The notes under the pieces: model-generated | The model's input: only the letters and a program-made list of their open reading frames with translations | What the model was told of the DNA's origin: nothing | Database searches by the model: none | Position numbers and translations under genes: made by a program | Source of the DNA: a virus | IMG/VR virus record: IMGVR_UViG_3300032323_000670 | Coordinates: 51,977 to 115,976 of that record | Length of the DNA: 64,000 bases | Direction: 5' to 3' (one strand) | Part shown: positions 3,026-28,262 of the stretch, in pieces | Position numbering within the stretch: the first letter of the stretch is position 1 | Layout: every line of letters begins with the position of its first letter

Positions 3026-3030
3026 ATTGT

Positions 3031-3591: not shown

Positions 3592-3596
3592 CACTC

Positions 3597-3617: not shown

Positions 3618-4028
3618 AGCAACATGATGCTAATCACCTCTACTTGGAAAGAGGGTAAAACTTTCAAGATGATTCCTACAGATGCGGATTGCCCGTATGT
3701 AGAATGTATTTATGATCCACAAATCAAAGTCCTAGCAGTCATCGGTGCTATTACTAAGGATATCTTTCACATGATGCCTAAGCTTGATGCTAATGGTGAT
3801 CCTGAAACACGTAAGTCTCCAGCACGAGATGGTTCTCCATTCAAACAAGAGCGTAGAACTATTGAAACATTCCAAGAATACTATTTGGAAGAGCGTAGTG
3901 AGATTGAAGGTTTCATTAATCACTTTGCACACAACGCATCTACATATGACTACAAGACATATTTAGATATGGAGGCAACACCTGTAAGTGATATCCCTAA
4001 TTTTCCTACATTAAGCGTAACAGAATAA
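3615..4028 (+). CDS. conserved hypothetical protein (137 residues)
   Basis: I place the start at ATG 3615. The frame is open back to 3588, but that only offers a TTG overlapping the previous stop, whereas ATG 3615 is preceded by the A-rich leader shared with other genes of the phage. The protein contains DADCPYVECIYDPQIKVLAVIGAI and later ERRTIETFQEYYLEERSEIE, suggesting a small alpha/beta protein with an amphipathic helix. It ends one base before the DNA polymerase ATG. A replication accessory role, for example single-strand DNA binding, is possible from position alone; no motif proves it. Confidence 0.6.
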   Translation: MSNMMLITSTWKEGKTFKMIPTDADCPYVECIYDPQIKVLAVIGAITKDIFHMMPKLDANGDPETRKSPARDGSPFKQERRTIETFQEYYLEERSEIEGFINHFAHNASTYDYKTYLDMEATPVSDIPNFPTLSVTE

Positions 4029-4029
4029 T

Positions 4030-10225: not shown

Positions 10226-13200
10226 TATTTAATAGTTTGTATAGTTTCCATGTTTTTCAATCTCTGAATAGGATCCACCTGTGTACCAGTAAGACCAAAG
10301 AAGCTCTTAAGAAAATAGTTTGCTAGCTTAAGTCCGCCTTCATCTTGCCAAGCATATGGTCCAACAGACTTATCATAATAAGCACCTTCATCACCTGTCA
10401 CTAACATCCAAGCTCCATTAATTATCTTAACATAGTTAGTAATAGTATTACCAAATGCTATAGAGTCCATATTTAAAATGTTCTTGTAGTCATCTAAACC
10501 GTACCCTGGCCAAGGAATGAATGCTGTGTTCTCATTCAGTGTTGCTTTAGTTAAGAAGAGTAAGTGATTAGACATATAACCTGATAAGTTAAACTCTGTT
10601 CCTTGCTCTCTTGTCCAAGGTAATGGTAAGAATCCAGACTTAGCTTTTAGTTTTTTGAAACGGTCTTCATCATCCTCATCATAATTAAACAAAAGTTTGA
10701 TTAGTACACCCGCCATGATTGATACTACAAGCTCAGTTAGCATCTTCTTCATAGCTACTTTTTCATGCGGCAACATGAATTTAAAATCTCTACCTAATGT
10801 TTTGATACCTCTTACAAGATATGCTATAGATGCTGTGTAATAACCCAGTTGCATTTGATTTGCTCCAACATCCCATCTAGCTTCAGGTTCTAAGAAGTTA
10901 CCTCTGTATCCCCATCTGTTTATAAACATACCCACAAAGAAGCGCTTAAGGAAAGACATTGTACGGAATACAAGATATCTATCTCCCATACTTCTATCAT
11001 ATGATGCATATGCTCCATTCAACCTTCGGTTGGTAGACTGAATCTTTTTGCGCATCATTTTGTACTTCTTACCACCTACACCCCATTCAGGATCAATACC
11101 CTCTTTAAGTTGTATCTGACCATCTTTAACTTCCCAAGCTTCTATATAAGGAATAGTTTTAGTAACTCCGTTTATAGTTTGCTCTACAGTTTGATGGTGC
11201 ATCATACCTCCAAATAAACCTAGAGTAGCATTCATCTGTGTCCACTCTCTGGTATTAGTTAACCAGCTCCTGGACATGAAGTCTTTTGCAAATGTTCTAG
11301 ATATACCTTCAGTCATCTTACCTTTTCTACTATCTAACATCTTCTGGTCAGGATCAAACAGTTCATACATCTGAACGTTTAATGACTTAGGACCAAACTT
11401 ATATATCTGAAAGCTTACTTCAGCTGCAGTAATATTACCAAACAAAGTTCCTTTAGCTAAGCTAGTAGGTGTAATTGCGTCACCTCCTGCAGATTCAATC
11501 ATTGCCTGATACCTAGCACCAAAGGAGTTCTTAAGTGCAGAGTGTATATCTAATGCAAAGAAAGACATAGAGGATAATCCAAGAAGCTTATTAGTAATCT
11601 TGTTTAGTCCAACCATATCAACAGTTGCACCAGCTTGAGTCTTACCTTCAAACTCTCTTTCTATAAGTGAATTAATAACTTGAGCCCTTACTGAGTCACC
11701 CTTTTCAGTAGAAAAGCGCATAACACCTTTATTTAGAAAGTCTGACTTACTTGCTTTCTTCATGTTTCTGATAGCACCCTTCTTACCATTTACTACCTGT
11801 TGTAATGATCTTACTTCAGGACTAATCTCAATAAGTTTCTTTTGTCTTTCCGCACTCTGCATATAACGCATCATACCTTGGAGAACGTCTTCAGATGCTT
11901 CCTCTGGTGTGAAATCATACTTACCTGTAATAGGAATATCAGCCGTCTCATTATCAAATAAGTCTAGATTAACAAGTGCTACATCAGCCTGTGGAGGATA
12001 ACCATCTTCCAAGTCATCTTTTGCTCTACTGAATGTTGCTTTAATATTACTTGCCCAAGATGATAGCTTAGTTCTAGCATCTCCATTTAACATAGTCTCA
12101 CTAAACTCTTTACGGTATCTAGGTATGTATACACCTAGTTTAGCATTTGCGTTAAGACCTTCTTGGTTCTCTAAGTGATAATACAAAAGTTTATTAATCA
12201 GGTTAAACTGATTTAAGTTACGTGATTTAATGTTATAGTACTCTTCATTGCGGTACTTACCATTAGCTTTCGGTAACCATTTACCATTATGATCCACAGT
12301 AGCAAGTGAAAGATCTCCCTTATCAAGGGCTTCCTTCATTGTAACTTTTTTAGTCTTGTAGATTTCTTTAACGTCTCTCTTAAAGTAGTTAATGTTTGGT
12401 ACTACACCCCGTAGAGTTTCTGTTACCTTACCTGTTTCATCTAAGATATCTGTGTTCTCAAGATAGCTAGGATCATAGGGTACAGTAATACTCCATGCGG
12501 CAGTTCTTTTATATCTTCTTACTTGTTTACCATTAGGCATGTAGTACTCTTGTAAAACATGGTTAGCTAAGAACCAAGCTTTGAACTTAGAGCTCTGCTC
12601 CATCATCATATCAGCTATCTCAGGTTCAAGTAAACTATCTACAGTATTTACATCAAACTCACTTATGTTAAGAAGCTCTTTAAGTTTCTTAAGATCAATA
12701 GAATCTTTAGGATCTTCACCAGCTTTAAGAAACTCGTTTACTCTATCTACATAGTGTGTGGTAGCTCTCTTACTAGAAAGTTCTCCTAGTTGTTTTCTTA
12801 TATCTCTAAGCTCATCAATCTCACCGTCAGTAAGACCTAAGTTGTTTCTTCTATCTTGTATCTCATGATAAGCTTTCGCTCTTGCTGTATCCTCAAGAGG
12901 ATTTACTTTACTATAACCTAATTGGAATAGTCCAAGTTCTTCATCAAATCTATCTAGGAATTCTTGATCAGATCTACTTATACCTTGTAAAGTAGTTAAG
13001 TCATCCTTGATTAATTCATACTCAGCTTCTAACTCTTGAATTTTCTTAAGCTTTGCAGGAGTCATTATACTAGCATCAGGTTGACCGTTATCATCACGGA
13101 ATCCACCCAGCTGTTTGTATAACTCATCAAGTACTTCAATAGATCTTATATCAGCCTGCTTATCTTTTGGTAGCTGACTGAGTATTTCTTTCATCCTGTC

Positions 13201-15774
13201 AACAAGCGTTCTGCGCTTTTCATAGTAGGATGGTTTGATCTTTACTACAGTATTTCTATTAATCCAGTCTTGACGCAATCTTCTAAATTCAGTATCACCA
13301 TACTTTACAGCGGGGTTAGTATCTAAGATATACTGCTCATATGATTTGAGCGCACCTTGAAACATACCCTCTCTTTCATTCCACTGGTAATACTTATTAG
13401 TGACTTGTCTATGCTCAAGTAATCTCTGGGCAATGGCAAGGTCTTCTCCTTGTTTCATACTACCGTCAGGATTAGTAAGAGCATATAGTTCTTGGTATTC
13501 TCTCCAATAGATATTAAGTTCTGATAGGTAGTCAGGGTCATTTCTCTCATCTGGACTATTAAGAGAAGCGTTATGGTTAGTAATCTTTTGAAGTATTAAC
13601 CAACGTTTATTATAAGCCTTTTTACCAATATCATCTTTTAGTAAGACCTCATCTTTCTCATACACCTCATCAGAGAAATCTCTATAGAATTCTCTCATCA
13701 TCATCTCTCTTTCTATGTACAGTTTATCCAGCTCATCGCTGTTTCCTGTCTCCATTTGTTTAAGTTGAGCTTGTTTGATTTGTTCATTCTTTCTATCAAG
13801 CTCAATCTCATATCCTTTAACGTGGTGAATAAACGCACGTCTATCACGTTCTTCAAACTTACCCTCTTGAGTTCTTATACCCTGCTTGTCTATATAGCCA
13901 ACTAAAGCCATAAGACCTTTTACATCATTAGGATTATACCCAACTGCATCAGTAAGTTTTTTAATTTCTTGAACCTGCAGGTTGTATTTCTTCTGTACAG
14001 CATTCATTACATCAATGACATTGTCACTAATATAAGAAGCAAGACCAAACACAACAGGATCTTGTATATTCATATAAGCTTCTAACCAAGCACCAATAGC
14101 TCCGGTATCTCCCATCTCACCACCTAACCACTTCTTAAGAGTATCCTTGTTTACTTTAGCACCTTCATATTCTCTAAGGTAACGGTCAACAAGATCTTGT
14201 GGTGCGCCTTTCTTTTTAAGCTCACTTATAATTTCATTATAGTGTCTATCTACCTCAAGGGATAGGGGTTCTAATACATTAGCAAGTAACTCAGATGAAC
14301 CTTCAAGATTCATATTTTCTACAAGAGAGTCAGCAGTAGATAACTTAGCTTCTATACCACCAATAAGGTCAAGGATAGGACCAAGGACTTCTCCAGCTTC
14401 AGCAAATGCTTCACGAGATTCATCAAGGGTCTTCTTCCACTCATTGATTACTTGCTGGTAATAATAAAACTTTTTAACCTTAGTGGGGTCATTCTTACGC
14501 TTAGATAGCTCCTGCATGTGAAGAACCATCTTTTCACTCATAGCTTTAATACTAAACATAGTATTTACATAAGCCCGGGCTCTAGCATCAGTATACTCAA
14601 GTAACTCTTCTGTACCTGTAAATCTATCATTAAGTTCTTTCTGAAATCCTTTAAGATTATTCATGATAACTTCAAAGTCAGAACCAGAGAATTGAGACTC
14701 TAATATAAGAGCCATCTCATCTAGATTTTGGTTATCTTGAATACGTTTGATCTGAGTGCGTGCAGTACGGTAAATGTTATTGATACTCTCAGTAATAGCT
14801 ATAGCACCTTCATCAGTCTTAGACTTAACAAGAACATCATCAATGTATAGATTCTGGTCTTTAATGAAAGCAACAAAGTCAGCTTGATTCACAGAGTCTA
14901 TCTTAAATTCTACAGCTGCCTCAGTGAATATCTTAGACAGGTCGTCCAAGGTGGTGTACTCAGAGAGTTCAGAGATATTGATCTTCTTATCCCCAGAGCT
15001 CTTACGTATGAACTGACGTAGATTGTACAGCATTTCTTTCAACCATTCAAGGAAGCCTTTAGATAAAGGTTTACCATCACGCTTAGCCATAGCGGATTTG
15101 GTGAGGGATTTTACTATCACTTCTTCCTTAAAGTAATCTGACTCAGGGTCTAGTCTCCCAAACCCCTCGGTAACCATATCAATCATCTGCATACCTTCCT
15201 CTGTCTTAGATAACTGTTCATACAGTTTACTAAACAATGCTGGGTTCTCTACAGCAATAGCTCTTACAAACGGGTGAGCAAACTCATGGAAAGCTGTCTC
15301 CATGTTTAATTTATCCTTGATAAAGTATACTTGACCTCCTACAAAGAATCCAGCCTCTCCGCTATATGGGGTACCCGATGCTTTTAATATCTCTAGAGCT
15401 TCTTCCTCATTGATCATATTATATGCTATCCCGAGTCTTTGTGAGAAGCTACCTATAATAGCATCTAGTACAGCGTTACCTGAACTAGAGCTTATATCCA
15501 TAGGACTTATGTTAATTGGATTAAAGATTGTATTAAAGATGGGTATTCTGGCAGCTAACTCTTTTAAGTTATCCATTTCTGTTTTACCAAAAGCATCTGG
15601 ATTCTCTACGTCAGACTCCTCAGTATATTCTCCGCGGGCCATAAGCTTTTCTATAACATCTTCTACATTACGGACTTCTCCATTGTTTTCCAAGAAGTCT
15701 TTATAGGCTTGATACTCACCTACTGCAGATACTAAGTCATTCCAATTTTTTCCTGCGGGACAGCTATTTATCAT
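10225..15774 (-). CDS. giant virion (cargo) protein with HExxH protease-like segment
   Basis: 1849 residues. Near the N-terminus METAFHEFAHPFVRAI holds an HExxH zinc-protease motif (H163, E164, H167), with an acidic helix EEVIVKSLTKS some 50 residues later as a possible third ligand. The centre (about 400-950) is mostly charged helix, probably coiled coil. A hydrophobic stretch near residue 1680 (LTELVVSIMAGVLIKLLF) is followed by an acidic patch and could insert in a membrane. The start overlaps the stop of the RNA polymerase gene (ATGA). In crAss-like phages the giant proteins after the tail genes are packaged and ejected with the DNA, so I infer a virion cargo role. I cannot assign the remaining regions. 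Confidence 0.75.
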   Translation of the reverse strand: MINSCPAGKNWNDLVSAVGEYQAYKDFLENNGEVRNVEDVIEKLMARGEYTEESDVENPDAFGKTEMDNLKELAARIPIFNTIFNPINISPMDISSSSGNAVLDAIIGSFSQRLGIAYNMINEEEALEILKASGTPYSGEAGFFVGGQVYFIKDKLNMETAFHEFAHPFVRAIAVENPALFSKLYEQLSKTEEGMQMIDMVTEGFGRLDPESDYFKEEVIVKSLTKSAMAKRDGKPLSKGFLEWLKEMLYNLRQFIRKSSGDKKINISELSEYTTLDDLSKIFTEAAVEFKIDSVNQADFVAFIKDQNLYIDDVLVKSKTDEGAIAITESINNIYRTARTQIKRIQDNQNLDEMALILESQFSGSDFEVIMNNLKGFQKELNDRFTGTEELLEYTDARARAYVNTMFSIKAMSEKMVLHMQELSKRKNDPTKVKKFYYYQQVINEWKKTLDESREAFAEAGEVLGPILDLIGGIEAKLSTADSLVENMNLEGSSELLANVLEPLSLEVDRHYNEIISELKKKGAPQDLVDRYLREYEGAKVNKDTLKKWLGGEMGDTGAIGAWLEAYMNIQDPVVFGLASYISDNVIDVMNAVQKKYNLQVQEIKKLTDAVGYNPNDVKGLMALVGYIDKQGIRTQEGKFEERDRRAFIHHVKGYEIELDRKNEQIKQAQLKQMETGNSDELDKLYIEREMMMREFYRDFSDEVYEKDEVLLKDDIGKKAYNKRWLILQKITNHNASLNSPDERNDPDYLSELNIYWREYQELYALTNPDGSMKQGEDLAIAQRLLEHRQVTNKYYQWNEREGMFQGALKSYEQYILDTNPAVKYGDTEFRRLRQDWINRNTVVKIKPSYYEKRRTLVDRMKEILSQLPKDKQADIRSIEVLDELYKQLGGFRDDNGQPDASIMTPAKLKKIQELEAEYELIKDDLTTLQGISRSDQEFLDRFDEELGLFQLGYSKVNPLEDTARAKAYHEIQDRRNNLGLTDGEIDELRDIRKQLGELSSKRATTHYVDRVNEFLKAGEDPKDSIDLKKLKELLNISEFDVNTVDSLLEPEIADMMMEQSSKFKAWFLANHVLQEYYMPNGKQVRRYKRTAAWSITVPYDPSYLENTDILDETGKVTETLRGVVPNINYFKRDVKEIYKTKKVTMKEALDKGDLSLATVDHNGKWLPKANGKYRNEEYYNIKSRNLNQFNLINKLLYYHLENQEGLNANAKLGVYIPRYRKEFSETMLNGDARTKLSSWASNIKATFSRAKDDLEDGYPPQADVALVNLDLFDNETADIPITGKYDFTPEEASEDVLQGMMRYMQSAERQKKLIEISPEVRSLQQVVNGKKGAIRNMKKASKSDFLNKGVMRFSTEKGDSVRAQVINSLIEREFEGKTQAGATVDMVGLNKITNKLLGLSSMSFFALDIHSALKNSFGARYQAMIESAGGDAITPTSLAKGTLFGNITAAEVSFQIYKFGPKSLNVQMYELFDPDQKMLDSRKGKMTEGISRTFAKDFMSRSWLTNTREWTQMNATLGLFGGMMHHQTVEQTINGVTKTIPYIEAWEVKDGQIQLKEGIDPEWGVGGKKYKMMRKKIQSTNRRLNGAYASYDRSMGDRYLVFRTMSFLKRFFVGMFINRWGYRGNFLEPEARWDVGANQMQLGYYTASIAYLVRGIKTLGRDFKFMLPHEKVAMKKMLTELVVSIMAGVLIKLLFNYDEDDEDRFKKLKAKSGFLPLPWTREQGTEFNLSGYMSNHLLFLTKATLNENTAFIPWPGYGLDDYKNILNMDSIAFGNTITNYVKIINGAWMLVTGDEGAYYDKSVGPYAWQDEGGLKLANYFLKSFFGLTGTQVDPIQRLKNMETIQTIK

Positions 15775-18700
15775 GATAATCCTTTACATTTTTTAAAAAA
15801 CTCTTTTACATCTGTATCTGTAACAGTTTGTGCTCCAATACCTTTATAGTAACCTTGCACAAACTCACTACCTGACTCTGTACCTAGTGTTGTTGTAACA
15901 CCAGGAGTTTGAGAAGTAAGTAAGCTTAACGTAGGATTCTGGTACGCAAAGTCTTGTAACAACCTCTTAGACAAATATACAAATAAACTAGGAGCAGGTC
16001 TATTATTAGTTCTAACATTTTCTGTTGGTTGAATGTCAAATCCTACAAAGGTCTGACCCAAACCTCTAGATGGAAATACTATCTCCATACCCTGTCCCTT
16101 CTTCTCAAGTAATCTATCTAAAGCTTTATCAATTTGAGCTTTAAGCTTATCATAGTTTTGATCTGTCACAGGTATAGCAGTAGATACGGGAGCAGCTAAA
16201 GTTGGTATACCAAGTGATATACCCATAGCTTTACCTGGCATCCAAGCTTGTCTTGTTTGACTCTTGTCAACAGCATCCATTGATACACCAGTCTCAGTCA
16301 AGAAGAAGTCATCAAATACAAATAGTTTACCTGGATTTGCAGCACCTATTTCTTGTACAGCTTTTGTATCAAGAGCGTATGTACCATTAGAGACAAACTT
16401 TAACTCATCATAGATCAGAGCAGGTTTCATAACCTCAGCAGTTTGTGTATTTACAACTGTAGGTACTCCCGGTTGATTCTTTATTAGTCCTGGGAATGGT
16501 CCACCTGTCTCACCAAGACGTTCTGTTTGCACTCTTTCAAATGAAGCAGCTTGTGTAGTGACTGGAGCTATGGTTGGTTGACTAGCTACAAAATTTTTAA
16601 ATCCTTCTAGATCTTGTTTAGTACCTAATATATGTGTCTGATCAGACTTTCTTACAACGTGTGTTGTATTTTCCATATCAGAATAATCCACACCAATTAA
16701 ACCATCATTATATTTATAATAACTTAATAAGTCTCTTGCATCTTGTGTACGACTTGGAGGTACGAAACCTGGTTTTAAACGTCTTCTGTTGAATTTTACA
16801 TTAGATATAACTACTGGATTTTTTACATTAATTATAACTGGAAGAACAATAGGTGATTCTGATGATCTTGTTCCAGCAAATTCTGTTGCATAATTCAGAT
16901 CAGCTAAAAATATAGCACCTGAACCAAAACCTTCTAACGAATCCCGATCATTAAATTTATCAAACTGAGCAGATGTACCATGGTAAACGATATCCTTAAC
17001 CTTACTGTCTGGGAATATACTGTCAATGTATTGAGAGTATTGTTGTGGTGTACCTATAGAAGAAAGTTCAGGATTAGAATCAAATAGTTCTGTCACACCC
17101 TCCTTAACTGGAGTTTGAGCAGTAGGTTGTATTACTTCAAACTCAATAGCAGCAGCACCATCTTTAAATCTATCTATTACACTTACATCATCATCTCTCC
17201 AACCTTCTTTTGTCCAAGTTCCTTTCCAACCTGCAGACCCTTTAGGATGAATAGAAGTTACTCTAGCATAAACAGTTTTAGTAGTACCATCTGCGGACTT
17301 ACCGTAGTGTTTAACAACATCTCCTACTTTGATACCATACTTACCCATTTCACCTTCACTTCTAGTAGTTCTAGTTCTGAACCCTGCTTCTATCATATCA
17401 ATAGAATGAGCGTTAGGACCGAGAGCTTCTATTACTTCAGGGTTAGCCGTTACTGTAGAACCGAATGAGTTTATACCTGATACTTTGTTCTGAGGTATAT
17501 TAGCTACAGCTTGTTGACTTACATCAACTTGAGTAGAAGTTTCAACCGTAGGCTTAGGAGATACTAGCTTATCAAACTTCTCATTAAATATAATGTTAGA
17601 AGGTATAGGTCCTGCAGCATTAAACATATCTGCCATCTCTTTACCACTATAACCATTAAGATTAGTTTCAGAGTAGTCCGATACCAAGAACTCCTTATTA
17701 GAGTTTTGTTTAGCATACTCATACAAACCTTTGATTTCATCTATGATTTCTTCAGGAGTACTAGACTTTTTTACATCATAGAACTTCTTAGTTACAATCG
17801 CATAAGACTGTCCTTGTAACCCTCTACTTTGACCTTGGATAGCTCCAAATCTATCTTTAGCTAGTTTTGCGGAACCTGATCCATGTGTAGGTTTACCTCC
17901 TTTAGAACTTCCTTCATTAGAACCAAATACAAATATCTGATTTGGTTGTAAACTATCTACTTTACCAGAATATGTTTTACGAGCAGCAGAAGCCTGTGCT
18001 GATTGACCAAAGGTCTTTTTGTATACATCTCTGATTGCTTGTTCAGCTTCAGCAGACATACCTCTACTACCAATAGCTGCAAAGTTTCTAGTAAGAGTTG
18101 GTGTTTCAATAGCTACAAACTGAGAACCATCCCATGTATACCATCCTTTTGGTAAATGTGATTGAGCTTTAGCATTAGGATCATTGTATACATAAACCGG
18201 TTTACCTGCTTGTATAGCCATCTCAACTGCATACCCAGTACCACCTTGAACAATTTCAGACTTGATTACTATTCTTTGTTCTTCTTTTTTCTTATTCACA
18301 TCTTCACTCCAAACGTCACCTACTTTACCAATAGGTGCAATAGCAAATACCGCATCAGAATAATACACCTGAGCCCAGTTTCTAATCAGTCTCTCGTCTT
18401 TCATTGTAGCATACGCATATGGTACAATTTTACCAACTTTCATCTTATTACCCCACATTTTATTAGCAGCTTCAGCTACTTTAGATGCTCCGGTAACAGC
18501 AACTTGTAATTCAGTTATGTCAACATTACCCTTAGGAGCATTCTTTTCAGAACGTGTTCCTGTATAGTAATGGTTAAACTTAACAGGTCCAAACTCTTGC
18601 CCTATCTCATCCCACTTAGTATCTGCACCCGCAGCTCCACCAGAATGACCTCTAACATTTGATGGTCTTAGTGCACCTGTCAAACTACCTATAGAAGAAC

Positions 18701-21700
18701 TCCAGTTTACAAAAACGGCACCTGGTGTATATTTACCAGTATCTGGATCAACCGAAGCTTGTTTTTGCTCAAACAACTCTTTATAATTTGCTAGTATAGC
18801 GGTACCTACATTAGAGTTGAGGTCATTAATAAATGTATTCAAAGCAGGCTCAAGCATCTCAGGTAGACCTGTTCTAGTCTGATCAAATATAGATCCCATA
18901 GATATACGGGAGTTTGGATCATTACCTGCTTGCATGAACGCTATAAGAGGTAGTTTAGAGAAGAATGCTGCAATAGCTTCTTTCTCCGCTTCTCTCTCTG
19001 CTATAACTTTTGATGGATCCATAAGATTCATCATCTGACTTGTGTAAGCTGTCAATTTATCAGGGTCCTTTTCTCTAAACTTCTGAGTTAAGAAAGTGTA
19101 ACCTTGTTCTGATTTAGAACGTAATGTCTTTAATACATCATAGTTCTCAGCAAGCGCTTCATTCTGACTTAAGATATAATCAAATCTATCAGCAATTGAG
19201 AATATACCTAACTGTCTATCTGTTTTAAATAAAGCATTTACATTAAATGTATTATCTAATGCTTTGTTTCTTATAAACTCCTCATACAATTGCGGTAAGT
19301 CATAGTTAACTACTTCACCCTCCTTTGCCATTGCAGATAGGTCTGTCATACGTTTTTGTGCAAAGTATCTAAACTCTTGATTCTTCTCAATTGATTTATA
19401 TGGCATACCATCTCTAAGCATCTCACGCTCATAAACAAACTGTCTATATATAGCGCGTGCTTTAGTATCTGGATATCCTGCAAACATATCTATTGGTAAA
19501 TTTGCCACCAATCCTAAACCATAACCTTCTTTAGCAAACGCTTTAGTCTTATAGTCATTATCAATTGCATAGTTATCTACAGCTAGCTTACCTGTTTTTA
19601 TATCATAGAATGCTCCAAATCCTAAGTTTGGTTCTTTTTCAATTGTAACTTCTTTAGAAATATCTGCAGACTTATATGTGGTAGCAGCAGGATCAAAAGT
19701 ATTATGGTAATTATAAAACATGTAAGATGTCAAGTTATTGACAAAGTCAGACTGATATCTTTCTCTTACATCCTTATCCATGAATTGATTACTTAGCACT
19801 CTAGCTAAGTAACTATTAATGTTTCTTACACCTCTTAAAGGAAGTAAAGCAGACACTGCATCCACCATAATATCAGATGCTATGAAGTTGTGAAGGACTG
19901 TCTTATTTAATAAGTTATTAATACTTTCTGTAGAGAATCTATCTGAAAGCTCTCTTAGATTAGCTTCTTTTTGAGTAGCTTCAAATAAAGACTGTTGCTT
20001 GTCTGTATCAAAGTTAAGATTTCTCTTAAGCTCAACATTACCTTTAGCCATGTTCTGAACTTCCAAGAAATGTAAAAACGTTGCTAAAGCATAATCACTA
20101 TCTGTGTTATCAGTCTTAGCTTGCTTCATTAACTCCTCTTGGGTAAAGAAGTAGTTCCCATCATTTAGGAATTCTTGAGCTAGCGATAATACTTCTCCGG
20201 TAGGTTTACTATAAATATTTCCTTTTTTGTCAATAGTAATTGCTAGATCAGGACGATACTTTTCTAATACATCAATCATAGCTTGATACTTAGCAAAATT
20301 TGGATTAGAGATCTCACCTTTTGCAAGTGGGAATACACCATTATACGATTGAACTAACTGTAAGTATTCTCTTACCATTGGTTGAGATGCAAGGGCAACA
20401 GCTGTTTTAATAGGCACCCCTCCCATAACCATGAATTCTACTTCACCTTCAAATTCTTTAACAGCGTTGATGTCAAACACCCAATCTTTTTTAGCTACGT
20501 CTAAGTAACCATTCATGATTTGAGATATTACATCTGCAATGTCATATTCATTATTAGCATCCAGAGTATGACTTAGTGATACAACTTTAGTACCATCATC
20601 TTCTACATAGTAGTTATGATCCATACGTATCACATTTTCTATACTCCAAGAGCTTGTACCTTTGGAGTTATACACAGTAGATACTGGTTGCATTGCTAGA
20701 CCCACACTCTTATATAAAGGAAAGAATGTAGCTCCTGAAGCTAACATACTAATACCTGTCTTACCAGAAGACATAGCAACCGCTTTATCAATATTGTAGC
20801 GGTTCTGCATTATCTTGGTGGGTGAGTTAATTACTTGCTCCTTTCTATTAATAGGACTGAAATCTTTTACAATACCTGTATCATCATCAGTAAAAATGTC
20901 TGTAGAGTTAGGTGTAGTTAAACTAACATAGTTAGCAGGTCTTAATAAAAGATCTGACCAGCTATCAAGTATATCATTTTGATATGCTCTAGGTTTAAAT
21001 GAGTTACTTTCTCTATTGAGTTCACGTAATTTTTTATTTTCTTCTTCAAGTTCAATGTTTCTTCTATCAAGTGTTTCATTCAAGAAGTTTTCTCCAAATG
21101 CTCTCTTTAAGAATTCTCTTTTAACAGTAGCTTCTTCTTCAGTTAATTTGTCTATCTGAGACTGAAAAGAGTCTTCTACATCCTGATAGCTTGCATTTGA
21201 AGCATTTGGATCAGCTATAAACTTATCATAAGCTGCATTTAATTCTTTTCTTAATGTGTTTATAGGTTTTCTATACTTATTTTTTATAGCATTAAACTCC
21301 TCTTCCTGCTCAGGTGTGAAAGGTAACTTTTGTTTTCTCACCTCATCTATATACTCATTATAATCATCATAGATACTAGCAATATAGTCTTTAATCTTTT
21401 TCTTCTCTTCTACTATTTCTTCAAAAGTTTTAGTAGTAGCCTTAGGTCTAGTTAGTTCTATAACACCTTTATTATCACTGATAACAGGTCTGATTACAAT
21501 CAACTTATCAATGTCAAAGTCACCACCTGATTTAGCTACAATCTCTGAAGGTACAATGATTATGTTACCCGCTTCTGCAGGTAAGAACTCAGCAACCTCC
21601 ATTGATTCAATGTAGTTCATACTAGCTGTTGGAATACGAGTACCTCCCATAGTAAGCATCTTGCGATGGTCACCAGTGTTTAACCATTCCTCATCATATT

Positions 21701-24700
21701 TTATTAACTCATTGAGTCTTTCTCTCGTACCTATGACTTTTCCATCAAGATCTTTTAATTTTAGTAACTTAACAAAGTCTCCTTGTAAAGCTACCTTAAC
21801 TTGCATTGATCCAATAGATACAGTTTTTTTAGGGTCATCTGTTACTTTACCTTTCTTATCTAGAGGTCTATAGAATAATAAACCATTTGTACCATACTTT
21901 TCTAGATCTTTTTCAGTTGGTTTAGTAAACTTCTCAAAACCAATACCTGACCCTTGAATGTAAGCTTCACCATAGATCATCTGATCTATAATTCTTTTAT
22001 TTACAAGAGAGTTTACAAGCTTTTCAATTTTTGCTGGATCATTAGCTAGATCTAATGGTAAAAGAATGTTTCCAGTAGAACTAAGCTTTATATAATCTAT
22101 ATCATATAGTGATATGTCTCTCTTAGCTAAGTTAGTTTTAATAAACTCAATGAGCTTTTGCTTATTGATTTTACCATCTGCATAGCCAAGTTCTTTCTTA
22201 AGATCTTCTTTAGCTACATCAATCATCTTAGAAATTGCTCTCTGATAACGTTGCTCTAATGCATATGCTGGTGACTCATTTTCCTTTTCAGTTTCATCAG
22301 TAATTGAATTCCAAAGCTTACGTCTTTTTTCATCACTCATATTAGGTTTGAAATCAACAGGGAATCCTTGCTCTAATACACCAGACGTAATAAGCTTACG
22401 AGCTTGAGTTGGGAACTTCTGTTTGTTATTCCATGTATCATGTGTAGCAAGCTGCTCTTTTAAATACTGTAGGAATATGTCATTTTTAGTAAAGGTGTAA
22501 CCTGGTTTAGTGTATGCAGGCTCAGCACTACCATTACGTTCAGTATAGAAAAGATCTAACTTTCCGTTCTTACCAAGAGATGCTAACTTAGAACCTGAAT
22601 GCATTACAGCATAGGCGATACCTTGAGAAACCATTTTATTATGAAGCTTCTCTAAGTGACTATCTTTAATAACACTAGGTATTAAAGGCATTACTGAATA
22701 CTTGTGGAAAGCATTCACTGGGAAATTACTAGTAGATAGTGCACCACCATACTGCAATTTTTTAACAGGGAAGAATATAGCTAGCCTATCAGCATCTACC
22801 TCAACACCATTAATAATATCTTCATATAGTTTTTGCTTAACTGGTCCCCAGTTACCAAATCTCATCTCTAAAGCACGGTATGCATCAAAGCTAATCCAAG
22901 CTTGAGCATCTGCAGACTTCATGTTTTTATACTCACTATACTTCTTACTATAATACTTTATAGCAGAAGCTTCATCTTGAAATTGTTTTTTGTTAACAGC
23001 TACACCTGCAGCATACTTCACCATTGTATCAAAGTAGATAGAATCTTCAAATGCGTCTTCTAGTACTGCAGTTGATAGAACCTCTCCTTCTAATGCACCT
23101 TTCTCTGGTTCTGGTAAACCCGTATTCTTAAACCAAGCACTAGATGTATATATGCCAGGATTATTAGCAATCACAGATTGTGTTGTGGCACCTGTTACAG
23201 GAATCTTACCTGTTGCAAAGAATGCAGCCACACGTTTCATGTGCTCATCCTTATTATGATTATAAATAGCAGGATCACCATAGACAAGAGTATTCATCTC
23301 CACTCTATGGATAAAGCTAGTGTATACAAAGTTTTCTACTGCAGCAGGGAAAATAGTATCTATCTCAGCATAGACCCTTCTACTTACTTTTTTACCGTTT
23401 TGTAACTCTTCAACATTGTAATCAAATTTCTTTTTTACTTCTGATAGCATTCCTGATCTTTCAGATAAACCATAAGATCTAAGAGTCTCGGTATCTTTAC
23501 TGATCTCGTTGTTAAAATAGTTATTAAGATCTGTCTCTATTCTGAACTTTAAATCAGCATTACTTCTAATAGCACTTCTAAACTCTTCTACAGTATTTAT
23601 ATTACTGTTTATTAATTCATTTTTAACCGCATTACTAAGTATGCCATCAAATACTGTAAACTTAGATCCTGCATCTTCATATGTTACATACTTACCGTCT
23701 TTAAGATAAAGTATGATGTCTGATGCTTTTTCCCCATAGACATTGTTCTTACTAGCCTTTACCTTTTTGATACGCTCAAGTTCTGAACCAACATAATCCA
23801 GTATAATAGCATTAGCTGCATCTCTACCTAGAGAAGCGTTGTTTCCAGATCTAGCTTGAGCAAATAGTTCAGGACGCACATAATAGTTAATACTAGGATC
23901 TCCGATAAGCTTAGCAATATAAGCTGAACTTTTATCAGCATGTTTGTAAGCTTCAGTAGCACCATACATATTTGTAAAGAAGAAATCTCTTAACCATGCT
24001 GTTTGCTTATCAGAATCAGAAGACTTAATGCCTTTTACCATTGATTCTATTTCCGCAGTTAGATTTATTAATTGAGTTCCTTCTAAAGACTTTAAGTCAA
24101 GAGTTGCTCTTACTCCCTTATATCTCATTCTACCTTGAAGATTTGCTCCAAACATTCTCTGGAATATCTGAGATGTTTTTACAGCAGGATTGATGGCAGG
24201 ATTGAAATGAGCTAAGTGAGGTTGAGCTGTAGCACTTTCTAGTGAATCGCTATTATTTAAATCTAATATTACATTACCTGCAGAGCTAGGATTACTTCTT
24301 TCACTTTTTGGTTTCTCCTCAGCTGTCTTAGACATGTAATTAGCATACAGAGGGTTTACTCTTGACTCAATCTCATAAAGCTTTTTAAAATTACCCTCAT
24401 GATTATATACAAGAGAATCTTCTCTCTTTTGCCCGGAATATCTAGTTATATATTCTACATTGCTATTGAAAAGACCTTTTTGCTTATCCTCTAATCTAAA
24501 TTTTAATATTGTATCTACAATACCAGATTCATTAAGATTAGCAATGTTTTCCTCTGTATTAGTTAAGCGTATACCTAGATCCCCAAAGAATTCTATTGGA
24601 TTAATATTTTCTATTGATTTACCAGCATACTTGTTTTTTAAAGCTTTTACACTGATTCTCACATTACCTTGAGCATCATAGCTTTTAAAAGGTGACGGGT

Positions 24701-27700
24701 TATAAGATATAAATTGATTAGCAAAGTCTCTTCCTAAAGCCGCAGGTGCTGAATCAGCAACACCTACAACTACTTCAATACTACTGTCTCTTTTTTTAAC
24801 AAGCATCTTCATGCCCTGTATTCTATCATACCTAACACTATGAAAAAGTAAAACCCATAACGAGTGAGCACCTAGAGATGTATCTGTAGGTTTACCTAGT
24901 TTCCCTAAGAACTGCTGAAGCATTAAAGAGTTAGGATCAAGTTCACCCTTTGTTTTCTTTTCAGAGGCTAGAGAGAGCTTTTCGTACATATCATCTATAG
25001 TATTACTACCCTCAACAGCTGCTGACACAAGATTATATATAACTCTCGGATCAGCTAGTTCTATTCCGCCTATAATATTATACTTGTAACCATCTGGATT
25101 TTCATCAGTTACCTCAACTCTTTTGTGCACAGATCCCATAAGGAATCTCATTTCAGGATTTACCCTTTCATAGTCAGTCTTCTTAGTTCCGTCATTTGAT
25201 TCAAGTTGATTAGTTACAGGATCACCATCTTCTGCATTCTCAGATGTACCTTCAACATATGAAAGCTCCTCATCATTAAGAATAGATTCTGTAGTATCTA
25301 GAAAACCTGTACGCTGATTATAGTAAGCTATTACACCTATTTCTTTGTTGTTATTAAGATTCTCTAAATCTCCAAATTTATCAATAGCATCTTGAATATA
25401 AGAAAGTCTTTTTTCAATAACCTGTTGCTCAACACTACTTGTAACATTATCTAATTGATTAAGGAGCCTATCTCTGTTTGCAACAAAACTATTAAATGCA
25501 TAACGTAAAGCTATCTTCTTTGTCTCTGGATCATAAAGCGTACTAAGAGTATACTTACTACTAGCTTCTCCCGCTAATCCTTCACTTAGCATATCTACAT
25601 AGTCAGATATGTATGAGCCCATTGCTTCTGAAATAGCTAGTGAAGCATCAACATCTATCGTTTTTCTAACTCCCTTTTCATCAATGTTTAATGTTATACC
25701 TGAGTATAATACATCAAACTGAACATTCTCCTGGTTATAGGTTCTATCAACAAAGTCACCAGTATATAATTCATTAAATGCACTATTTAATAGCTCACTT
25801 TCTGTAAGGTGTACAGCTAAAGAGTTATTATCAGCTTTTCCAAATAAAGCTTTGAGTGCTTCCCATAATTTCTTAAAGAAAGATCTGAACTTGCTTGACT
25901 CTGTCTTTTGAGTCTTTGCATATTCACGGAACTCATCTGCTAAGTATTCCTCAGCATAGAGTATATGTTGCATATTACTAAAATCTAAGTCACCGCTGTT
26001 CATAGTTTCCCACTTAGCAGTACCGTGATTATAGTAAGTAATTGTCTTGTTTAGTTTCTTTACCTCATTGTACAATACCTCTCTTTCCTCATTAGTCATA
26101 AACAACTGAGTGAAAGCATGCCATGCTTCATGGTAAAGATCAGTGCTATCAGAGCCTTTGAAAAGAGTTATACCACTCTTTGTAAACTGAGCTTTGATTT
26201 TAGGATTAGTATTAGCATACTTAAACAATACTTGGTAGGGTACAACCTCAGACAGCTTCTTTGTTACTTGCTTTCCCTTACTGTCTCTAAAAGTAATTTC
26301 AGTAGTGTTATACCACTTGTCACCATCTTCAACTTGTTTAGCTGTAGCTTTAACGCTATCATCTCGCATACTGTAAAGTTTGCTAGGATCAATTCTAGCT
26401 TTGGTGGCTTCAATAGCAGCTTTACGAGCATCTTCTGAGAAGGTCATTCCCAAATTAGATAACTTTGGTTTAGACATCTCCTCAATTTCTTCATTAGAGG
26501 TTTCTTCAACCTCTTCTGATTCAGGTGTAATTTTAGACAGAGTCTCAATATTAGCATCATACTTAATGTATCCATTAAGCATCATAACATCTCCATTCTC
26601 ATCTACTTCAGCTTTGATATATGCATTATTAACAAGCCATTCTTTATATGGAATCGGATTGCTTACATATTCAAATTTACCATTACCTAATGGTGTAAGG
26701 CTGAACATGTCTATAGTTCTATTAGGAATTATATAAGACGGTTCATTATATGAAAACTGATTTTTAAATGTCTCAGTTTTACCATCTTCATTTGTTGCAG
26801 TTACGTTTCTGGTAAGAAAGTTTATAATCTTACTTTTTACATCAGGGTCTTTAGGATTTAAAGTTTCACCTTCTAGGTAAATTTGACCTGTTGTAGTATT
26901 AATTGATATACCACCGTCAGCTCCAAGAATAGTAAAATCTCTAATAGCAACATACTTTTGTTGAGCTGAAAGAGGTTGACCATCTGCACCAATGACATCT
27001 CCTGTAAGTAGATCAGCAACTGTATTTGCCATTTCAGGTGTATAGGCAGCCATTGCCAGCCTAACAGCAGTGCCATCAGAAAGTCTTATTAGTTTGGTAT
27101 CCTTCTTACCTACACGACTTATCTCTATTGAGTAGTTAGTTTTTAAATTACTTAATAGCGTTACTGCATCAGAATTATAATTAATGGTACCTTCACTATA
27201 TCCTGTTATATTTAATGGTAGTATCTCTCCTGGATTCTTATCCAAGTACTCCTTCATATTAGTTATGGCATCATAGGCCATTGAGTACTCATTAATAACC
27301 TTTTGTTTAGTTAGACTACTGTCTTTTTTAAGACGGTCTGCAATTGTTTGAACTGAAATACCTAACTGCTCTTCAAGATTATACTCACGGATACCATTCT
27401 CATTAACTTTAAATGAAGGAACGGTTCTTATAGGAAAGTATATAAGCTTTCCATTTTCTTTAGTAGTAACGTTGTAACCGTTATCAAAATAAACATACTC
27501 ACCATTTTTATTAGTAACTACAGCATGAAACTGTTGAGAAGTAATATCCTCTATGTTTTTAACAGACTGCATGTCAGGATAAAGCTGGTCAATAGAAATA
27601 CCACCTTTAACAAGTGATAAACGTACACCGCCTGGGACTCCTTGAAATGAAACTGTCCCCTCATTACTTCTACCAGTTAAGGTCATGATTTTACCTAGCT

Positions 27701-28262
27701 TTTTAATAAAGCCGTAATACCATTCTCTACCTGGTTTACTTTCATTACCTGTAGTACTTAAAGGATTGTATGGTAAGTCAGCACTTACTTTTTTATTAAT
27801 TACTATGACAGGTAACGGACTAGGGTTTGGTTTAGGTTGTAGTCTTTCTCCCTCATCAACACTATTGATTTGTCCAGCTAAATCTTTAGCGCCTTTAGAT
27901 CCTGATTGCTCAGCTATAAAGTTAGCTACATCCTGTAAAGAATTATTGAACCGGTCTAAAAGATTATCTACAGCAGCAACGTCATAACCCTTACCTTTAA
28001 GAGCAACCTTAACATCAGGGAATGACATCATAGTCATCTGTAAAGCGGATGGTACTTGACGAGCAAAGGTGATAGCTTGCTGCGGATCACCTGTCTTCTT
28101 TTCAATTAAGTCATGGATATACTTTACAAACTTTTCTGTATTAAAAGTTTTAATCTTATCATCATTAGCTCTTTCAGTTACAATCTTAGCTACAATAAGA
28201 TTTAAGTTATCAATGTCCTTGGACTCAAGTGTCCATGTACCGTCTGCTATGTTACAAATCAT
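15771..28262 (-). CDS. giant virion RNA polymerase fused to protease-like and polyvalent NAD/ADP-ribose-type domains
   Basis: 4163 residues in one open frame. At about 711-715 DLYHEAWHAFTQLF has an HExxH zinc-protease motif, with YAEEYLADEF about 60 residues on as a candidate third ligand. At 2248-2252 AKSGGDFDIDKLIVI carries the DFDID metal-binding signature of the two-barrel crAss-type RNA polymerase; DVISQIMNGYLDVAKKDWVF follows at about 2580. C-terminal domains, by motif: SLOG-like at ~3200-3375 (GHSGGAAGADT, KPVYVYNDPN); macro-like phage domain at ~3430-3565 (IFVFGSNEG, GLQGQSYAI, SNIIFNEKF); ASCH/PUA-like at ~3600-3700 (FRTRTTR, GIKVGDVV); ADP-ribosyltransferase-like 'ART-PolyVal' at ~3755-3880 (VYHGTSAQFDKF); a degenerate FVF-GIPT domain at ~3975-4095. 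It probably transcribes early genes after ejection; the extra domains suggest actions on host NAD- or ADP-ribose-based defence. ATGA overlaps link both neighbours. Protease processing is possible. Confidence 0.88.
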   Translation of the reverse strand: MICNIADGTWTLESKDIDNLNLIVAKIVTERANDDKIKTFNTEKFVKYIHDLIEKKTGDPQQAITFARQVPSALQMTMMSFPDVKVALKGKGYDVAAVDNLLDRFNNSLQDVANFIAEQSGSKGAKDLAGQINSVDEGERLQPKPNPSPLPVIVINKKVSADLPYNPLSTTGNESKPGREWYYGFIKKLGKIMTLTGRSNEGTVSFQGVPGGVRLSLVKGGISIDQLYPDMQSVKNIEDITSQQFHAVVTNKNGEYVYFDNGYNVTTKENGKLIYFPIRTVPSFKVNENGIREYNLEEQLGISVQTIADRLKKDSSLTKQKVINEYSMAYDAITNMKEYLDKNPGEILPLNITGYSEGTINYNSDAVTLLSNLKTNYSIEISRVGKKDTKLIRLSDGTAVRLAMAAYTPEMANTVADLLTGDVIGADGQPLSAQQKYVAIRDFTILGADGGISINTTTGQIYLEGETLNPKDPDVKSKIINFLTRNVTATNEDGKTETFKNQFSYNEPSYIIPNRTIDMFSLTPLGNGKFEYVSNPIPYKEWLVNNAYIKAEVDENGDVMMLNGYIKYDANIETLSKITPESEEVEETSNEEIEEMSKPKLSNLGMTFSEDARKAAIEATKARIDPSKLYSMRDDSVKATAKQVEDGDKWYNTTEITFRDSKGKQVTKKLSEVVPYQVLFKYANTNPKIKAQFTKSGITLFKGSDSTDLYHEAWHAFTQLFMTNEEREVLYNEVKKLNKTITYYNHGTAKWETMNSGDLDFSNMQHILYAEEYLADEFREYAKTQKTESSKFRSFFKKLWEALKALFGKADNNSLAVHLTESELLNSAFNELYTGDFVDRTYNQENVQFDVLYSGITLNIDEKGVRKTIDVDASLAISEAMGSYISDYVDMLSEGLAGEASSKYTLSTLYDPETKKIALRYAFNSFVANRDRLLNQLDNVTSSVEQQVIEKRLSYIQDAIDKFGDLENLNNNKEIGVIAYYNQRTGFLDTTESILNDEELSYVEGTSENAEDGDPVTNQLESNDGTKKTDYERVNPEMRFLMGSVHKRVEVTDENPDGYKYNIIGGIELADPRVIYNLVSAAVEGSNTIDDMYEKLSLASEKKTKGELDPNSLMLQQFLGKLGKPTDTSLGAHSLWVLLFHSVRYDRIQGMKMLVKKRDSSIEVVVGVADSAPAALGRDFANQFISYNPSPFKSYDAQGNVRISVKALKNKYAGKSIENINPIEFFGDLGIRLTNTEENIANLNESGIVDTILKFRLEDKQKGLFNSNVEYITRYSGQKREDSLVYNHEGNFKKLYEIESRVNPLYANYMSKTAEEKPKSERSNPSSAGNVILDLNNSDSLESATAQPHLAHFNPAINPAVKTSQIFQRMFGANLQGRMRYKGVRATLDLKSLEGTQLINLTAEIESMVKGIKSSDSDKQTAWLRDFFFTNMYGATEAYKHADKSSAYIAKLIGDPSINYYVRPELFAQARSGNNASLGRDAANAIILDYVGSELERIKKVKASKNNVYGEKASDIILYLKDGKYVTYEDAGSKFTVFDGILSNAVKNELINSNINTVEEFRSAIRSNADLKFRIETDLNNYFNNEISKDTETLRSYGLSERSGMLSEVKKKFDYNVEELQNGKKVSRRVYAEIDTIFPAAVENFVYTSFIHRVEMNTLVYGDPAIYNHNKDEHMKRVAAFFATGKIPVTGATTQSVIANNPGIYTSSAWFKNTGLPEPEKGALEGEVLSTAVLEDAFEDSIYFDTMVKYAAGVAVNKKQFQDEASAIKYYSKKYSEYKNMKSADAQAWISFDAYRALEMRFGNWGPVKQKLYEDIINGVEVDADRLAIFFPVKKLQYGGALSTSNFPVNAFHKYSVMPLIPSVIKDSHLEKLHNKMVSQGIAYAVMHSGSKLASLGKNGKLDLFYTERNGSAEPAYTKPGYTFTKNDIFLQYLKEQLATHDTWNNKQKFPTQARKLITSGVLEQGFPVDFKPNMSDEKRRKLWNSITDETEKENESPAYALEQRYQRAISKMIDVAKEDLKKELGYADGKINKQKLIEFIKTNLAKRDISLYDIDYIKLSSTGNILLPLDLANDPAKIEKLVNSLVNKRIIDQMIYGEAYIQGSGIGFEKFTKPTEKDLEKYGTNGLLFYRPLDKKGKVTDDPKKTVSIGSMQVKVALQGDFVKLLKLKDLDGKVIGTRERLNELIKYDEEWLNTGDHRKMLTMGGTRIPTASMNYIESMEVAEFLPAEAGNIIIVPSEIVAKSGGDFDIDKLIVIRPVISDNKGVIELTRPKATTKTFEEIVEEKKKIKDYIASIYDDYNEYIDEVRKQKLPFTPEQEEEFNAIKNKYRKPINTLRKELNAAYDKFIADPNASNASYQDVEDSFQSQIDKLTEEEATVKREFLKRAFGENFLNETLDRRNIELEEENKKLRELNRESNSFKPRAYQNDILDSWSDLLLRPANYVSLTTPNSTDIFTDDDTGIVKDFSPINRKEQVINSPTKIMQNRYNIDKAVAMSSGKTGISMLASGATFFPLYKSVGLAMQPVSTVYNSKGTSSWSIENVIRMDHNYYVEDDGTKVVSLSHTLDANNEYDIADVISQIMNGYLDVAKKDWVFDINAVKEFEGEVEFMVMGGVPIKTAVALASQPMVREYLQLVQSYNGVFPLAKGEISNPNFAKYQAMIDVLEKYRPDLAITIDKKGNIYSKPTGEVLSLAQEFLNDGNYFFTQEELMKQAKTDNTDSDYALATFLHFLEVQNMAKGNVELKRNLNFDTDKQQSLFEATQKEANLRELSDRFSTESINNLLNKTVLHNFIASDIMVDAVSALLPLRGVRNINSYLARVLSNQFMDKDVRERYQSDFVNNLTSYMFYNYHNTFDPAATTYKSADISKEVTIEKEPNLGFGAFYDIKTGKLAVDNYAIDNDYKTKAFAKEGYGLGLVANLPIDMFAGYPDTKARAIYRQFVYEREMLRDGMPYKSIEKNQEFRYFAQKRMTDLSAMAKEGEVVNYDLPQLYEEFIRNKALDNTFNVNALFKTDRQLGIFSIADRFDYILSQNEALAENYDVLKTLRSKSEQGYTFLTQKFREKDPDKLTAYTSQMMNLMDPSKVIAEREAEKEAIAAFFSKLPLIAFMQAGNDPNSRISMGSIFDQTRTGLPEMLEPALNTFINDLNSNVGTAILANYKELFEQKQASVDPDTGKYTPGAVFVNWSSSIGSLTGALRPSNVRGHSGGAAGADTKWDEIGQEFGPVKFNHYYTGTRSEKNAPKGNVDITELQVAVTGASKVAEAANKMWGNKMKVGKIVPYAYATMKDERLIRNWAQVYYSDAVFAIAPIGKVGDVWSEDVNKKKEEQRIVIKSEIVQGGTGYAVEMAIQAGKPVYVYNDPNAKAQSHLPKGWYTWDGSQFVAIETPTLTRNFAAIGSRGMSAEAEQAIRDVYKKTFGQSAQASAARKTYSGKVDSLQPNQIFVFGSNEGSSKGGKPTHGSGSAKLAKDRFGAIQGQSRGLQGQSYAIVTKKFYDVKKSSTPEEIIDEIKGLYEYAKQNSNKEFLVSDYSETNLNGYSGKEMADMFNAAGPIPSNIIFNEKFDKLVSPKPTVETSTQVDVSQQAVANIPQNKVSGINSFGSTVTANPEVIEALGPNAHSIDMIEAGFRTRTTRSEGEMGKYGIKVGDVVKHYGKSADGTTKTVYARVTSIHPKGSAGWKGTWTKEGWRDDDVSVIDRFKDGAAAIEFEVIQPTAQTPVKEGVTELFDSNPELSSIGTPQQYSQYIDSIFPDSKVKDIVYHGTSAQFDKFNDRDSLEGFGSGAIFLADLNYATEFAGTRSSESPIVLPVIINVKNPVVISNVKFNRRRLKPGFVPPSRTQDARDLLSYYKYNDGLIGVDYSDMENTTHVVRKSDQTHILGTKQDLEGFKNFVASQPTIAPVTTQAASFERVQTERLGETGGPFPGLIKNQPGVPTVVNTQTAEVMKPALIYDELKFVSNGTYALDTKAVQEIGAANPGKLFVFDDFFLTETGVSMDAVDKSQTRQAWMPGKAMGISLGIPTLAAPVSTAIPVTDQNYDKLKAQIDKALDRLLEKKGQGMEIVFPSRGLGQTFVGFDIQPTENVRTNNRPAPSLFVYLSKRLLQDFAYQNPTLSLLTSQTPGVTTTLGTESGSEFVQGYYKGIGAQTVTDTDVKEFFKKCKGLS

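What the first reader, a model, noticed from the sequence alone, without database searches (positions are those of the whole stretch)
15771..28262. One 4163-residue polypeptide combines a crAss-type virion RNA polymerase with a protease-like segment and at least four polyvalent C-terminal domains
Seen: HEAWH at residues 711-715, DFDID at 2248-2252, SGGAAGAD near 3205, IFVFGSN near 3440, an ASCH-like segment near 3620, and VYHGTSAQF near 3759, all in one uninterrupted frame. Known: DFDID marks the crAss-like two-barrel virion RNA polymerase; SLOG, macro-like and ART-PolyVal modules occur in polyvalent proteins of phages and conjugative elements. Inference: the particle injects a transcription machine with built-in host-takeover or anti-defence modules, perhaps released by self-cleavage at the HExxH segment. 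I have not seen this exact set described in one crAss-like polymerase.
Basis: partly seen in the sequence, partly recalled or inferred. Interest (0 to 1): 0.85.

Follow-up and report, generated by a model that had tools for sequence, protein, structure and literature searches.

The report
Phage polymerase carrying swappable ADP-ribose modules
A crAss-like phage encodes one giant protein in which the RNA polymerase that the particle is expected to inject is fused to a tail of enzyme-like modules linked to NAD and ADP-ribose chemistry, and relatives show that these modules are swapped like cassettes between very different phage polymerases.

Summary
All quoted motifs are where stated. The DFDID segment matches the solved crAss-like phage phi14:2 polymerase (6vr4, E=2.9e-23).

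New here: comparison with about 290 IMG/VR loci shows that the stretch after the core is a variable slot. SLOG, macro and ASCH modules occur in many orders, and their divergence is nearly independent of the polymerase core (Mantel rho 0.09, 0.14 and 0.02, against 0.83 for the HExxH domain). Modules 75-84% identical sit in cores only 22-32% identical.

The HExxH segment is a conserved core domain (47 of 49 polymerases, including short-tailed ones), so module release is probably not its main job; self-cleavage is untested. Polyvalent N4-type virion polymerases were already known, so this is a new variant of a known kind. A counter-defence role is inferred, not shown.

The parts
15771..28262 (-). 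4163-aa polyprotein ORF (ATG, table 11): crAss-type virion RNA polymerase with accessory modules
   Evidence: 4-nt overlaps with the upstream (28259-36070) and downstream (10225-15774) giant genes
25692..26279 (-). aa 662-857, conserved HExxH domain (putative zinc metallopeptidase)
   Evidence: HMM E 2e-57; invariant YHExxH, F, Q and EE..A(E) in 37 aligned relatives; in 47 of 49 distinct complete relatives and in gut crAss RNAPs; fold not matched in PDB
26118..26132 (-). HEAWH motif, aa 711-715
   Evidence: H-E-x-x-H invariant in alignments A6 and A14
18693..23915 (-). aa about 1450-3190, polymerase core shared with sibling polymerases (limits approximate)
   Evidence: blastp/blastn to relatives; sibling ORFs end from about 920 aa after DFDID on
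21507..21521 (-). DFDID catalytic motif, aa 2248-2252
   Evidence: profile A1 hits phi14:2 polymerase 6vr4 at 2.9e-23 across the motif
18000..18662 (-). aa 3201-3421, SLOG-type Rossmann module
   Evidence: phrog_768 DprA-like; relatives hit cpYpsA SLOG, DprA, LDcluster4 SLOG, Nuc_deoxyrib_tr; AF2 pLDDT 84 for SLOG+macro
17526..17978 (-). aa 3429-3579, macro domain (TARG1/C6orf130-like)
   Evidence: phrog_2072, NCBIfam NF049995 2.2e-26, Foldseek PDB best TARG1, prob 0.99-1.00; T3491-K3492 conserved
17121..17495 (-). aa 3590-3714, ASCH-like module
   Evidence: 47 relatives in IMG/VR, 43 of them fused to a crAss RNAP core; invariant RTxTTR, WxxEGW, EF; no Pfam or PDB hit
16557..17045 (-). aa 3740-3902, ART-PolyVal module
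   Evidence: Pfam PF18760 1.1e-7, 33.1 bits, cut-off 31.2
15786..16355 (-). aa 3970-4159, conserved C-terminal DUF7831-like domain
   Evidence: PF25176 6.3e-7 above cut-off; in 36 of 49 complete relatives; weak profile likeness to the macro module, hhalign prob 70
28259..36070 (-). upstream giant gene, 2603 aa, with PD-(D/E)XK nuclease segment
   Evidence: phrog_298 8.1e-5 at aa 1461-1681; PF12705 6.6e-4, below cut-off
10225..15774 (-). downstream giant gene, 1849 aa, HEFAH at aa 163

Best explanation
This is a crassvirus-type two-barrel RNA polymerase that has become a polyvalent protein. A conserved chassis (N-terminal region with an HExxH domain, polymerase core with DFDID, C-terminal DUF7831 domain) carries, in a variable slot between core and C-terminal domain, cassettes acquired by recombination: SLOG, macro, ASCH-like and ART. 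Shown here: the single frame, the domains, the homology to the solved phi14:2 polymerase, and the exchange of SLOG, macro and ASCH cassettes between distant polymerases. Inferred: the protein is packaged and ejected with the DNA, as in PhicrAss001 and phi14:2; in the cell the core transcribes early genes while the SLOG and macro modules bind or destroy ADP-ribose-type defence signals or ADP-ribose adducts (Thoeris-like signals, DarT-like DNA or protein ADP-ribosylation) and the ART modifies a host target. The cassettes would turn over fast because host defences differ.
For: Polymerase: searches (6vr4, 2.9e-23; gut crAss genomes), synteny of giant genes. Modules. Variable slot: tails of 917-2385 aa after DFDID in complete ORFs; at least one of the four modules in 11 of 49 distinct complete polymerases from an RNAP-only scan, and a tail over 1300 aa in 21. 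Modules found by module-only scans sit mostly in crAss polymerases: SLOG 49 of 76 loci, macro 45 of 80, ASCH 43 of 47. Exchange: Mantel rho with the core ASCH 0.02, macro 0.14, SLOG 0.09 against MPT 0.83 and DUF7831 0.40; 159 of 186 pairs with ASCH above 70% identity have cores below 35%; DNA-level cassettes with sharp edges. NAD/ADPr theme: sibling slots hold NADAR, SLOG, ART, macro, the same set that PMC9503650 links to countering NAD-derived immunity; TARG1/DarG macrodomains remove ADP-ribose from DNA (PMC8501950).
Against: No biochemical or proteomic evidence for this phage. Sibling slots also carry helicase, kinase and 2OG-oxygenase domains, so the slot is not only about ADP-ribose. The ASCH fold is untested and the third catalytic position of the ART cannot be recognised by eye. 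Foldseek E-values for the macro fold are only about 1e-2 (probability 0.99-1.00). Module scans were seeded with this window's modules and keep only the best 80 hits, so the fused fraction is biased upwards. For macro the Mantel correlation is small but nominally above zero (p about 0.04), so part of its history may be vertical.
Confidence: 0.62

Rival explanations
1. Self-processing polyprotein: the HExxH domain is a zinc protease that cuts the chain and frees the polymerase and each tail module in the particle or the host.
For: HExxH plus a downstream conserved Glu pair (EE..AE) invariant across relatives; beta hairpin, HExxH helix and later EE helix in the model; autoproteolysis is the published idea for N4-like polyvalent proteins (PMC5512222).
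Against: The domain is kept in siblings whose short tails hold no accessory module, and it tracks the core vertically (Mantel 0.83); no PDB peptidase fold matched, though the model is weak; N4 vRNAP is packaged unprocessed (PMC5512222); no profile match to the HExxH region of two N4-like vRNAPs.
Confidence: 0.3
2. The modules serve phage RNA metabolism or transcription control instead of defence: for example ART modifies host RNA polymerase as T4 Alt does, macro/SLOG process NAD-linked RNA or nucleotides, ASCH binds RNA.
For: They are fused to a polymerase; sibling slots hold a Dda-like helicase and a polynucleotide-kinase-like domain; T4 Alt precedent (PMC9503650).
Against: High turnover and cassette exchange independent of the core suit conflict-driven modules better than a fixed role in transcription; the same modules also occur as separate small phage genes.
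Confidence: 0.3
3. Artefact: an assembly chimera or frame fusion created the unusual domain set.
For: Only one of the sampled loci carries all four modules plus DUF7831.
Against: One open frame without stops; two- and three-module fusions recur in many independent contigs and in GenBank crAss genomes; genes on both sides follow the crAss order of giant proteins.
Confidence: 0.03

Closest known systems
Virion RNA polymerase gp66 of Cellulophaga phage phi14:2 (PDB 6vr4) and crassvirus transcription-block proteins
   Same: DFDID segment homologous at E=2.9e-23; giant gene set next to the virion genes
   Different: The solved chain has 2194 residues; this protein has 4163, with an HExxH domain upstream and five extra domains downstream
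Polyvalent virion RNA polymerases of N4-like phages (PMC5512222)
   Same: Injected polymerase fused to MPTase-like and ART domains; Klebsiella phage Pylas and Alteromonas phage PT15-A5 vRNAPs carry a homologous SLOG module
   Different: The N4 polymerase is an unrelated T7-like single-subunit type; its HExxH region gave no profile match to this one
NAD+/ADP-ribose effector networks of viruses (SLOG, Macro, NADAR, ART; PMC9503650)
   Same: Same domain vocabulary; that survey notes SLOG fusions to Macro and NADAR
   Different: The passages read mention no crAss polymerase and no exchange of modules between virion polymerases
RNAP ORFs of gut crassviruses cr50_1, cr113_1, cr130_1, cr112_1, cr116_1 and Kolpuevirus 'frurule'
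   Same: Carry one macro or one SLOG module in the polymerase ORF
   Different: One of the four modules each, in GenBank under labels such as DNA helicase or DprA-like; none has the five-domain tail

Membership tests
crAss-type two-barrel virion RNA polymerase | DxDxD catalytic segment homologous to the phi14:2 polymerase | tested here: met
   A1 profile to 6vr4, E=2.9e-23
crAss-type two-barrel virion RNA polymerase | two double-psi barrels in one chain | not tested
   one barrel placed by homology only; no structure was predicted for the core
crAss-type two-barrel virion RNA polymerase | packaged in the virion and ejected with the DNA | not testable with these tools
   shown for PhicrAss001 homologues by mass spectrometry (PMC10172136)
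Crassvirales | crAss-type structural genes and giant-gene block | tested here: met
   RNAP core and giant-gene order as in crAss genomes; MCP phrog_11589 1.7e-30, remote hit to cr116_1 MCP; TerL, portal and IHF not examined
polyvalent proteins | several functionally unrelated domains in one large phage or plasmid polypeptide | tested here: met
polyvalent proteins | delivered into the host with the DNA | not testable with these tools
   inferred from relatives
zincin-like MPTase | HExxH plus downstream Glu ligand | tested here: met
   invariant in 37 rows, EE at about +60
zincin-like MPTase | zincin fold | tested here: inconclusive
   model pLDDT 67.7, no PDB match
macro domain | macro fold | tested here: met
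   TARG1 and alphavirus macrodomains lead the Foldseek list, prob 0.93-1.00 in the first nine rows, E about 0.01-0.04
macro domain (TARG1/DarG type) | catalytic lysine | tested here: inconclusive
   T3491-K3492 conserved at the end of a core strand; equivalence to TARG1 K84 or DarG K80 not aligned residue by residue
SLOG | glycine-rich nucleotide-binding motifs and relation to DprA/YpsA/LOG families | tested here: met
   HSGGAxGxD and GGTGxAV conserved; family hits
ART-PolyVal | Pfam curated cut-off | tested here: met
   33.1 against 31.2 bits on the slice
ART-PolyVal | complete H-Y-[EDQ] catalytic set | tested here: inconclusive
   YHGT present; later motifs diverged
ASCH | ASCH/PUA-like fold | tested here: inconclusive
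   no Pfam, NCBIfam or PDB sequence hit; no model made

The most novel reading that the evidence does not exclude
Crassvirus virion polymerases are a general delivery chassis with a recombination-prone accessory slot: NAD/ADP-ribose counter-defence cassettes are traded between polymerases with only 20-35% identical cores, and even between unrelated polymerase types (crAss and N4), so that a counter-defence payload enters the cell before any phage gene is transcribed.
Probability: 0.45. Interest if true: 0.82.

Novelty: new variant of a known kind. Interest (0 to 1): 0.66.

Why it matters
Crassviruses are the most abundant human gut viruses, and their giant virion polymerases are largely unexplained in length. 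The data suggest that much of the length variation is an exchangeable payload site. That makes a testable prediction of which host defences are met at the moment of entry, gives a way to annotate hundreds of giant 'hypothetical' or mislabelled ORFs, and offers a natural model of protein delivery by fusion to an injected polymerase.

Tried and rejected
Whole-protein phmmer against PDB: no hit. A scan with the whole ORF as query: patterns fell in unconserved stretches, no relatives; the core alignment was used instead. Profiles of MPT, SLOG, macro, ASCH and DUF7831 against PDB sequences: no meaningful hits; the designed-repeat hits are helix matches without meaning. One combined five-module alignment for AF2 (A12) misaligned the fragments and was dropped for SLOG+macro with anchor rows. 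HExxH profile against the HExxH region of two N4-like vRNAPs: prob 1.5%, so common origin not claimed. The HExxH model gave no usable fold match. PADLOC: only a weak ShosA hit in the SLOG slice (0.0066), not used. Chimera considered and rejected. Drobysheva 2021 and Yutin 2018 were not held and could not be read, so earlier mention of some of these domains cannot be excluded.

Full report
1. The observation. The coordinates are right but the strand was not stated. Read on the plus strand the interval is full of stops. On the minus strand 15771-28262 is one ATG-started frame of 4163 codons in the standard code. The motifs lie at 711 (HEAWH), 2248 (DFDID), 3207 (SGGAAGAD), 3443 (IFVFGSN) and 3759 (VYHGTSAQF). 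The record is a 115,976-base IMG/VR virus contig. The gene lies between two other giant genes with 4-base overlaps: 2603 aa upstream and 1849 aa downstream.

2. The polymerase. A profile of 13 crAss sequences around DFDID hits the solved phi14:2 polymerase, PDB 6vr4, at E=2.9e-23, across the motif. tblastn and blastp link the core to polymerase ORFs of gut crassviruses in several families. The capsid protein is very distant: 29.6% to Leptolyngbya phage Lbo-JY46 and a short match to cr116_1, with a PHROG major head protein hit. This is therefore probably a deep-branching crAss-like phage. The second barrel was not tested.

3. The HExxH domain. In alignments of 37 relatives the motif YHExxH, a following F and Q, and an EE..A(E) motif about 55-60 residues on are invariant or nearly so. 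Of 49 distinct complete relatives found by a scan with the polymerase core alone, 47 have it, and the profile also detects it in gut crAss polymerases. It evolves with the core (Mantel rho 0.83). It is present in polymerases whose short tails carry no accessory module, so module release cannot be its only conserved role. The model (pLDDT 67.7) has a beta hairpin, the HExxH helix and a later EE helix, but matched no known peptidase. It may be a zinc peptidase; self-cleavage is a hypothesis that Iyer et al. already made for N4-like polymerases (PMC5512222).

4. The tail. (a) SLOG, 3201-3421: phrog_768 DprA-like; relatives hit cpYpsA SLOG, DprA, LDcluster4 and nucleoside deoxyribosyltransferase families, which I take to be the TIR-DrHyd-SLOG clade described in PMC9503650. 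(b) Macro, 3429-3579: phrog_2072 and NCBIfam NF049995; the SLOG+macro model has pLDDT 84.3, and its best PDB matches are TARG1/C6orf130 and alphavirus macrodomains. T3491-K3492 is conserved; TARG1 and DarG use a lysine (PMC8501950), but the equivalence was not aligned. (c) ASCH-like, 3590-3714: a real conserved unit with RTxTTR and WxxEGW motifs, whose fold was not confirmed. (d) ART-PolyVal, 3740-3902: over the Pfam cut-off on the slice; the third catalytic position is unclear. (e) DUF7831-like, 3970-4159: over the Pfam cut-off, at the C-terminus of most relatives (36 of 49), with weak profile likeness to the macro module.

5. The slot. Complete sibling ORFs extend 917 to 2385 aa beyond DFDID, so the core ends near residue 3190 here, where SLOG begins. 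Sibling slots contain Dda-like helicases, kinase-like AAA_33, NADAR, cpYpsA SLOG, 2OG-Fe(II) oxygenase and ART. SLOG, macro, ASCH and ART occur in many combinations and both orders (SLOG-macro and macro-SLOG), and sometimes on the N-terminal side of the core. In an RNAP-only scan, 11 of 49 distinct complete polymerases carry at least one of the four. In module-only scans the best homologues are mostly in crAss polymerases: SLOG 49 of 76, macro 45 of 80, ASCH 43 of 47; three SLOG loci are N4-like polymerases. These scans are biased by the seed and by the 80-locus limit.

6. Exchange. Against the window, ASCH is 84% identical where the core is 30% (L261), 77% against 24% (L272); macro 81% against 22% (L182); SLOG 69% against 27% (L100). 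blastn finds the same cassettes at DNA level with recurrent edges: macro aa 3422-3568 at 86.6%, ASCH aa 3586-3717 at 82.6%, macro+ASCH aa 3502-3714 at 77%. Across all pairs, module identity is nearly independent of core identity (Mantel rho ASCH 0.02, p 0.41; SLOG 0.09, p 0.09; macro 0.14, p 0.04), against 0.83 for the HExxH domain and 0.40 for DUF7831. Strong module conservation alone cannot explain this, because the same module families are much less alike (down to about 30-40%) in other polymerases whose cores are just as close. The ART set was too small and diverged to judge.

7. Mechanism. Shown: architecture and recombination. From the literature: crassvirus polymerase proteins are in the virion (PMC10172136) and polyvalent proteins are thought to act on entry (PMC5512222, PMC9503650). 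Inferred: the tail is an injected payload, and SLOG/macro/ART/NADAR point to ADP-ribose chemistry, so interference with NAD-derived immune signals or ADP-ribosylation of phage or host molecules is the most likely role, with ART acting on a host target. Rivals are self-processing and transcription or RNA-processing roles.

8. Novelty. Polyvalent N4 virion polymerases with MPTase and ART domains are published (PMC5512222). The crAss papers that could be read describe PD-(D/E)XK domains in the large proteins (PMC7886860); the passages read name no SLOG, macro or ART modules in the polymerase. Single modules are visible in GenBank crAss ORFs under other labels, and UniProt already names an ART-PolyVal-like protein in cr116_1. 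Two key papers were not available. The result is a new variant of a known kind, with a new and testable claim of cassette exchange.

Noticed in passing
L006 (cr108_1) about 12100-12480: The polymerase ORF stops at AGSD, inside the GSDFDID catalytic motif, and the frame resumes with DIDKMY a few hundred bases later: probably an intron in the catalytic loop.
   Followed up: partly
L012 (Klebsiella phage Pylas) and L018 (Alteromonas phage PT15-A5): N4-like virion polymerases carry a SLOG module homologous to the one in this crAss polymerase, at about residue 985-1165 (Pylas) and 1130-1250 (PT15-A5).
   Followed up: partly
window 62516-63994: The closest capsid relative in GenBank phages is Leptolyngbya phage Lbo-JY46 (29.6%), an unusual host label for a crAss-like capsid.
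   Followed up: no
window 28259-36070: The neighbouring 2603-aa giant protein carries a PD-(D/E)XK nuclease segment at aa 1461-1681.
   Followed up: partly
window 10225-15774: The neighbouring 1849-aa giant protein has its own HExxH (HEFAH at aa 163).
   Followed up: no
L093 13007-16384: A sibling polymerase tail combines SLOG, 2OG-Fe(II) oxygenase and NADAR.
   Followed up: no
L026, L038, L039, L047, L076, L082, L087, L094 tails: SF1 (Dda-like) helicase domains are a frequent payload of the same slot; 9-10 of 39 tails scanned match.
   Followed up: no
aa 3724-3770 and 3878-3893 of the ORF: The edges of the ART module (QQYSQYxxSIFPDSKVKDIVYHGT and HILGxKQDxEGFKxFV) are highly conserved at DNA level across many loci, even where the middle has diverged; they could act as recombination arms.
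   Followed up: partly
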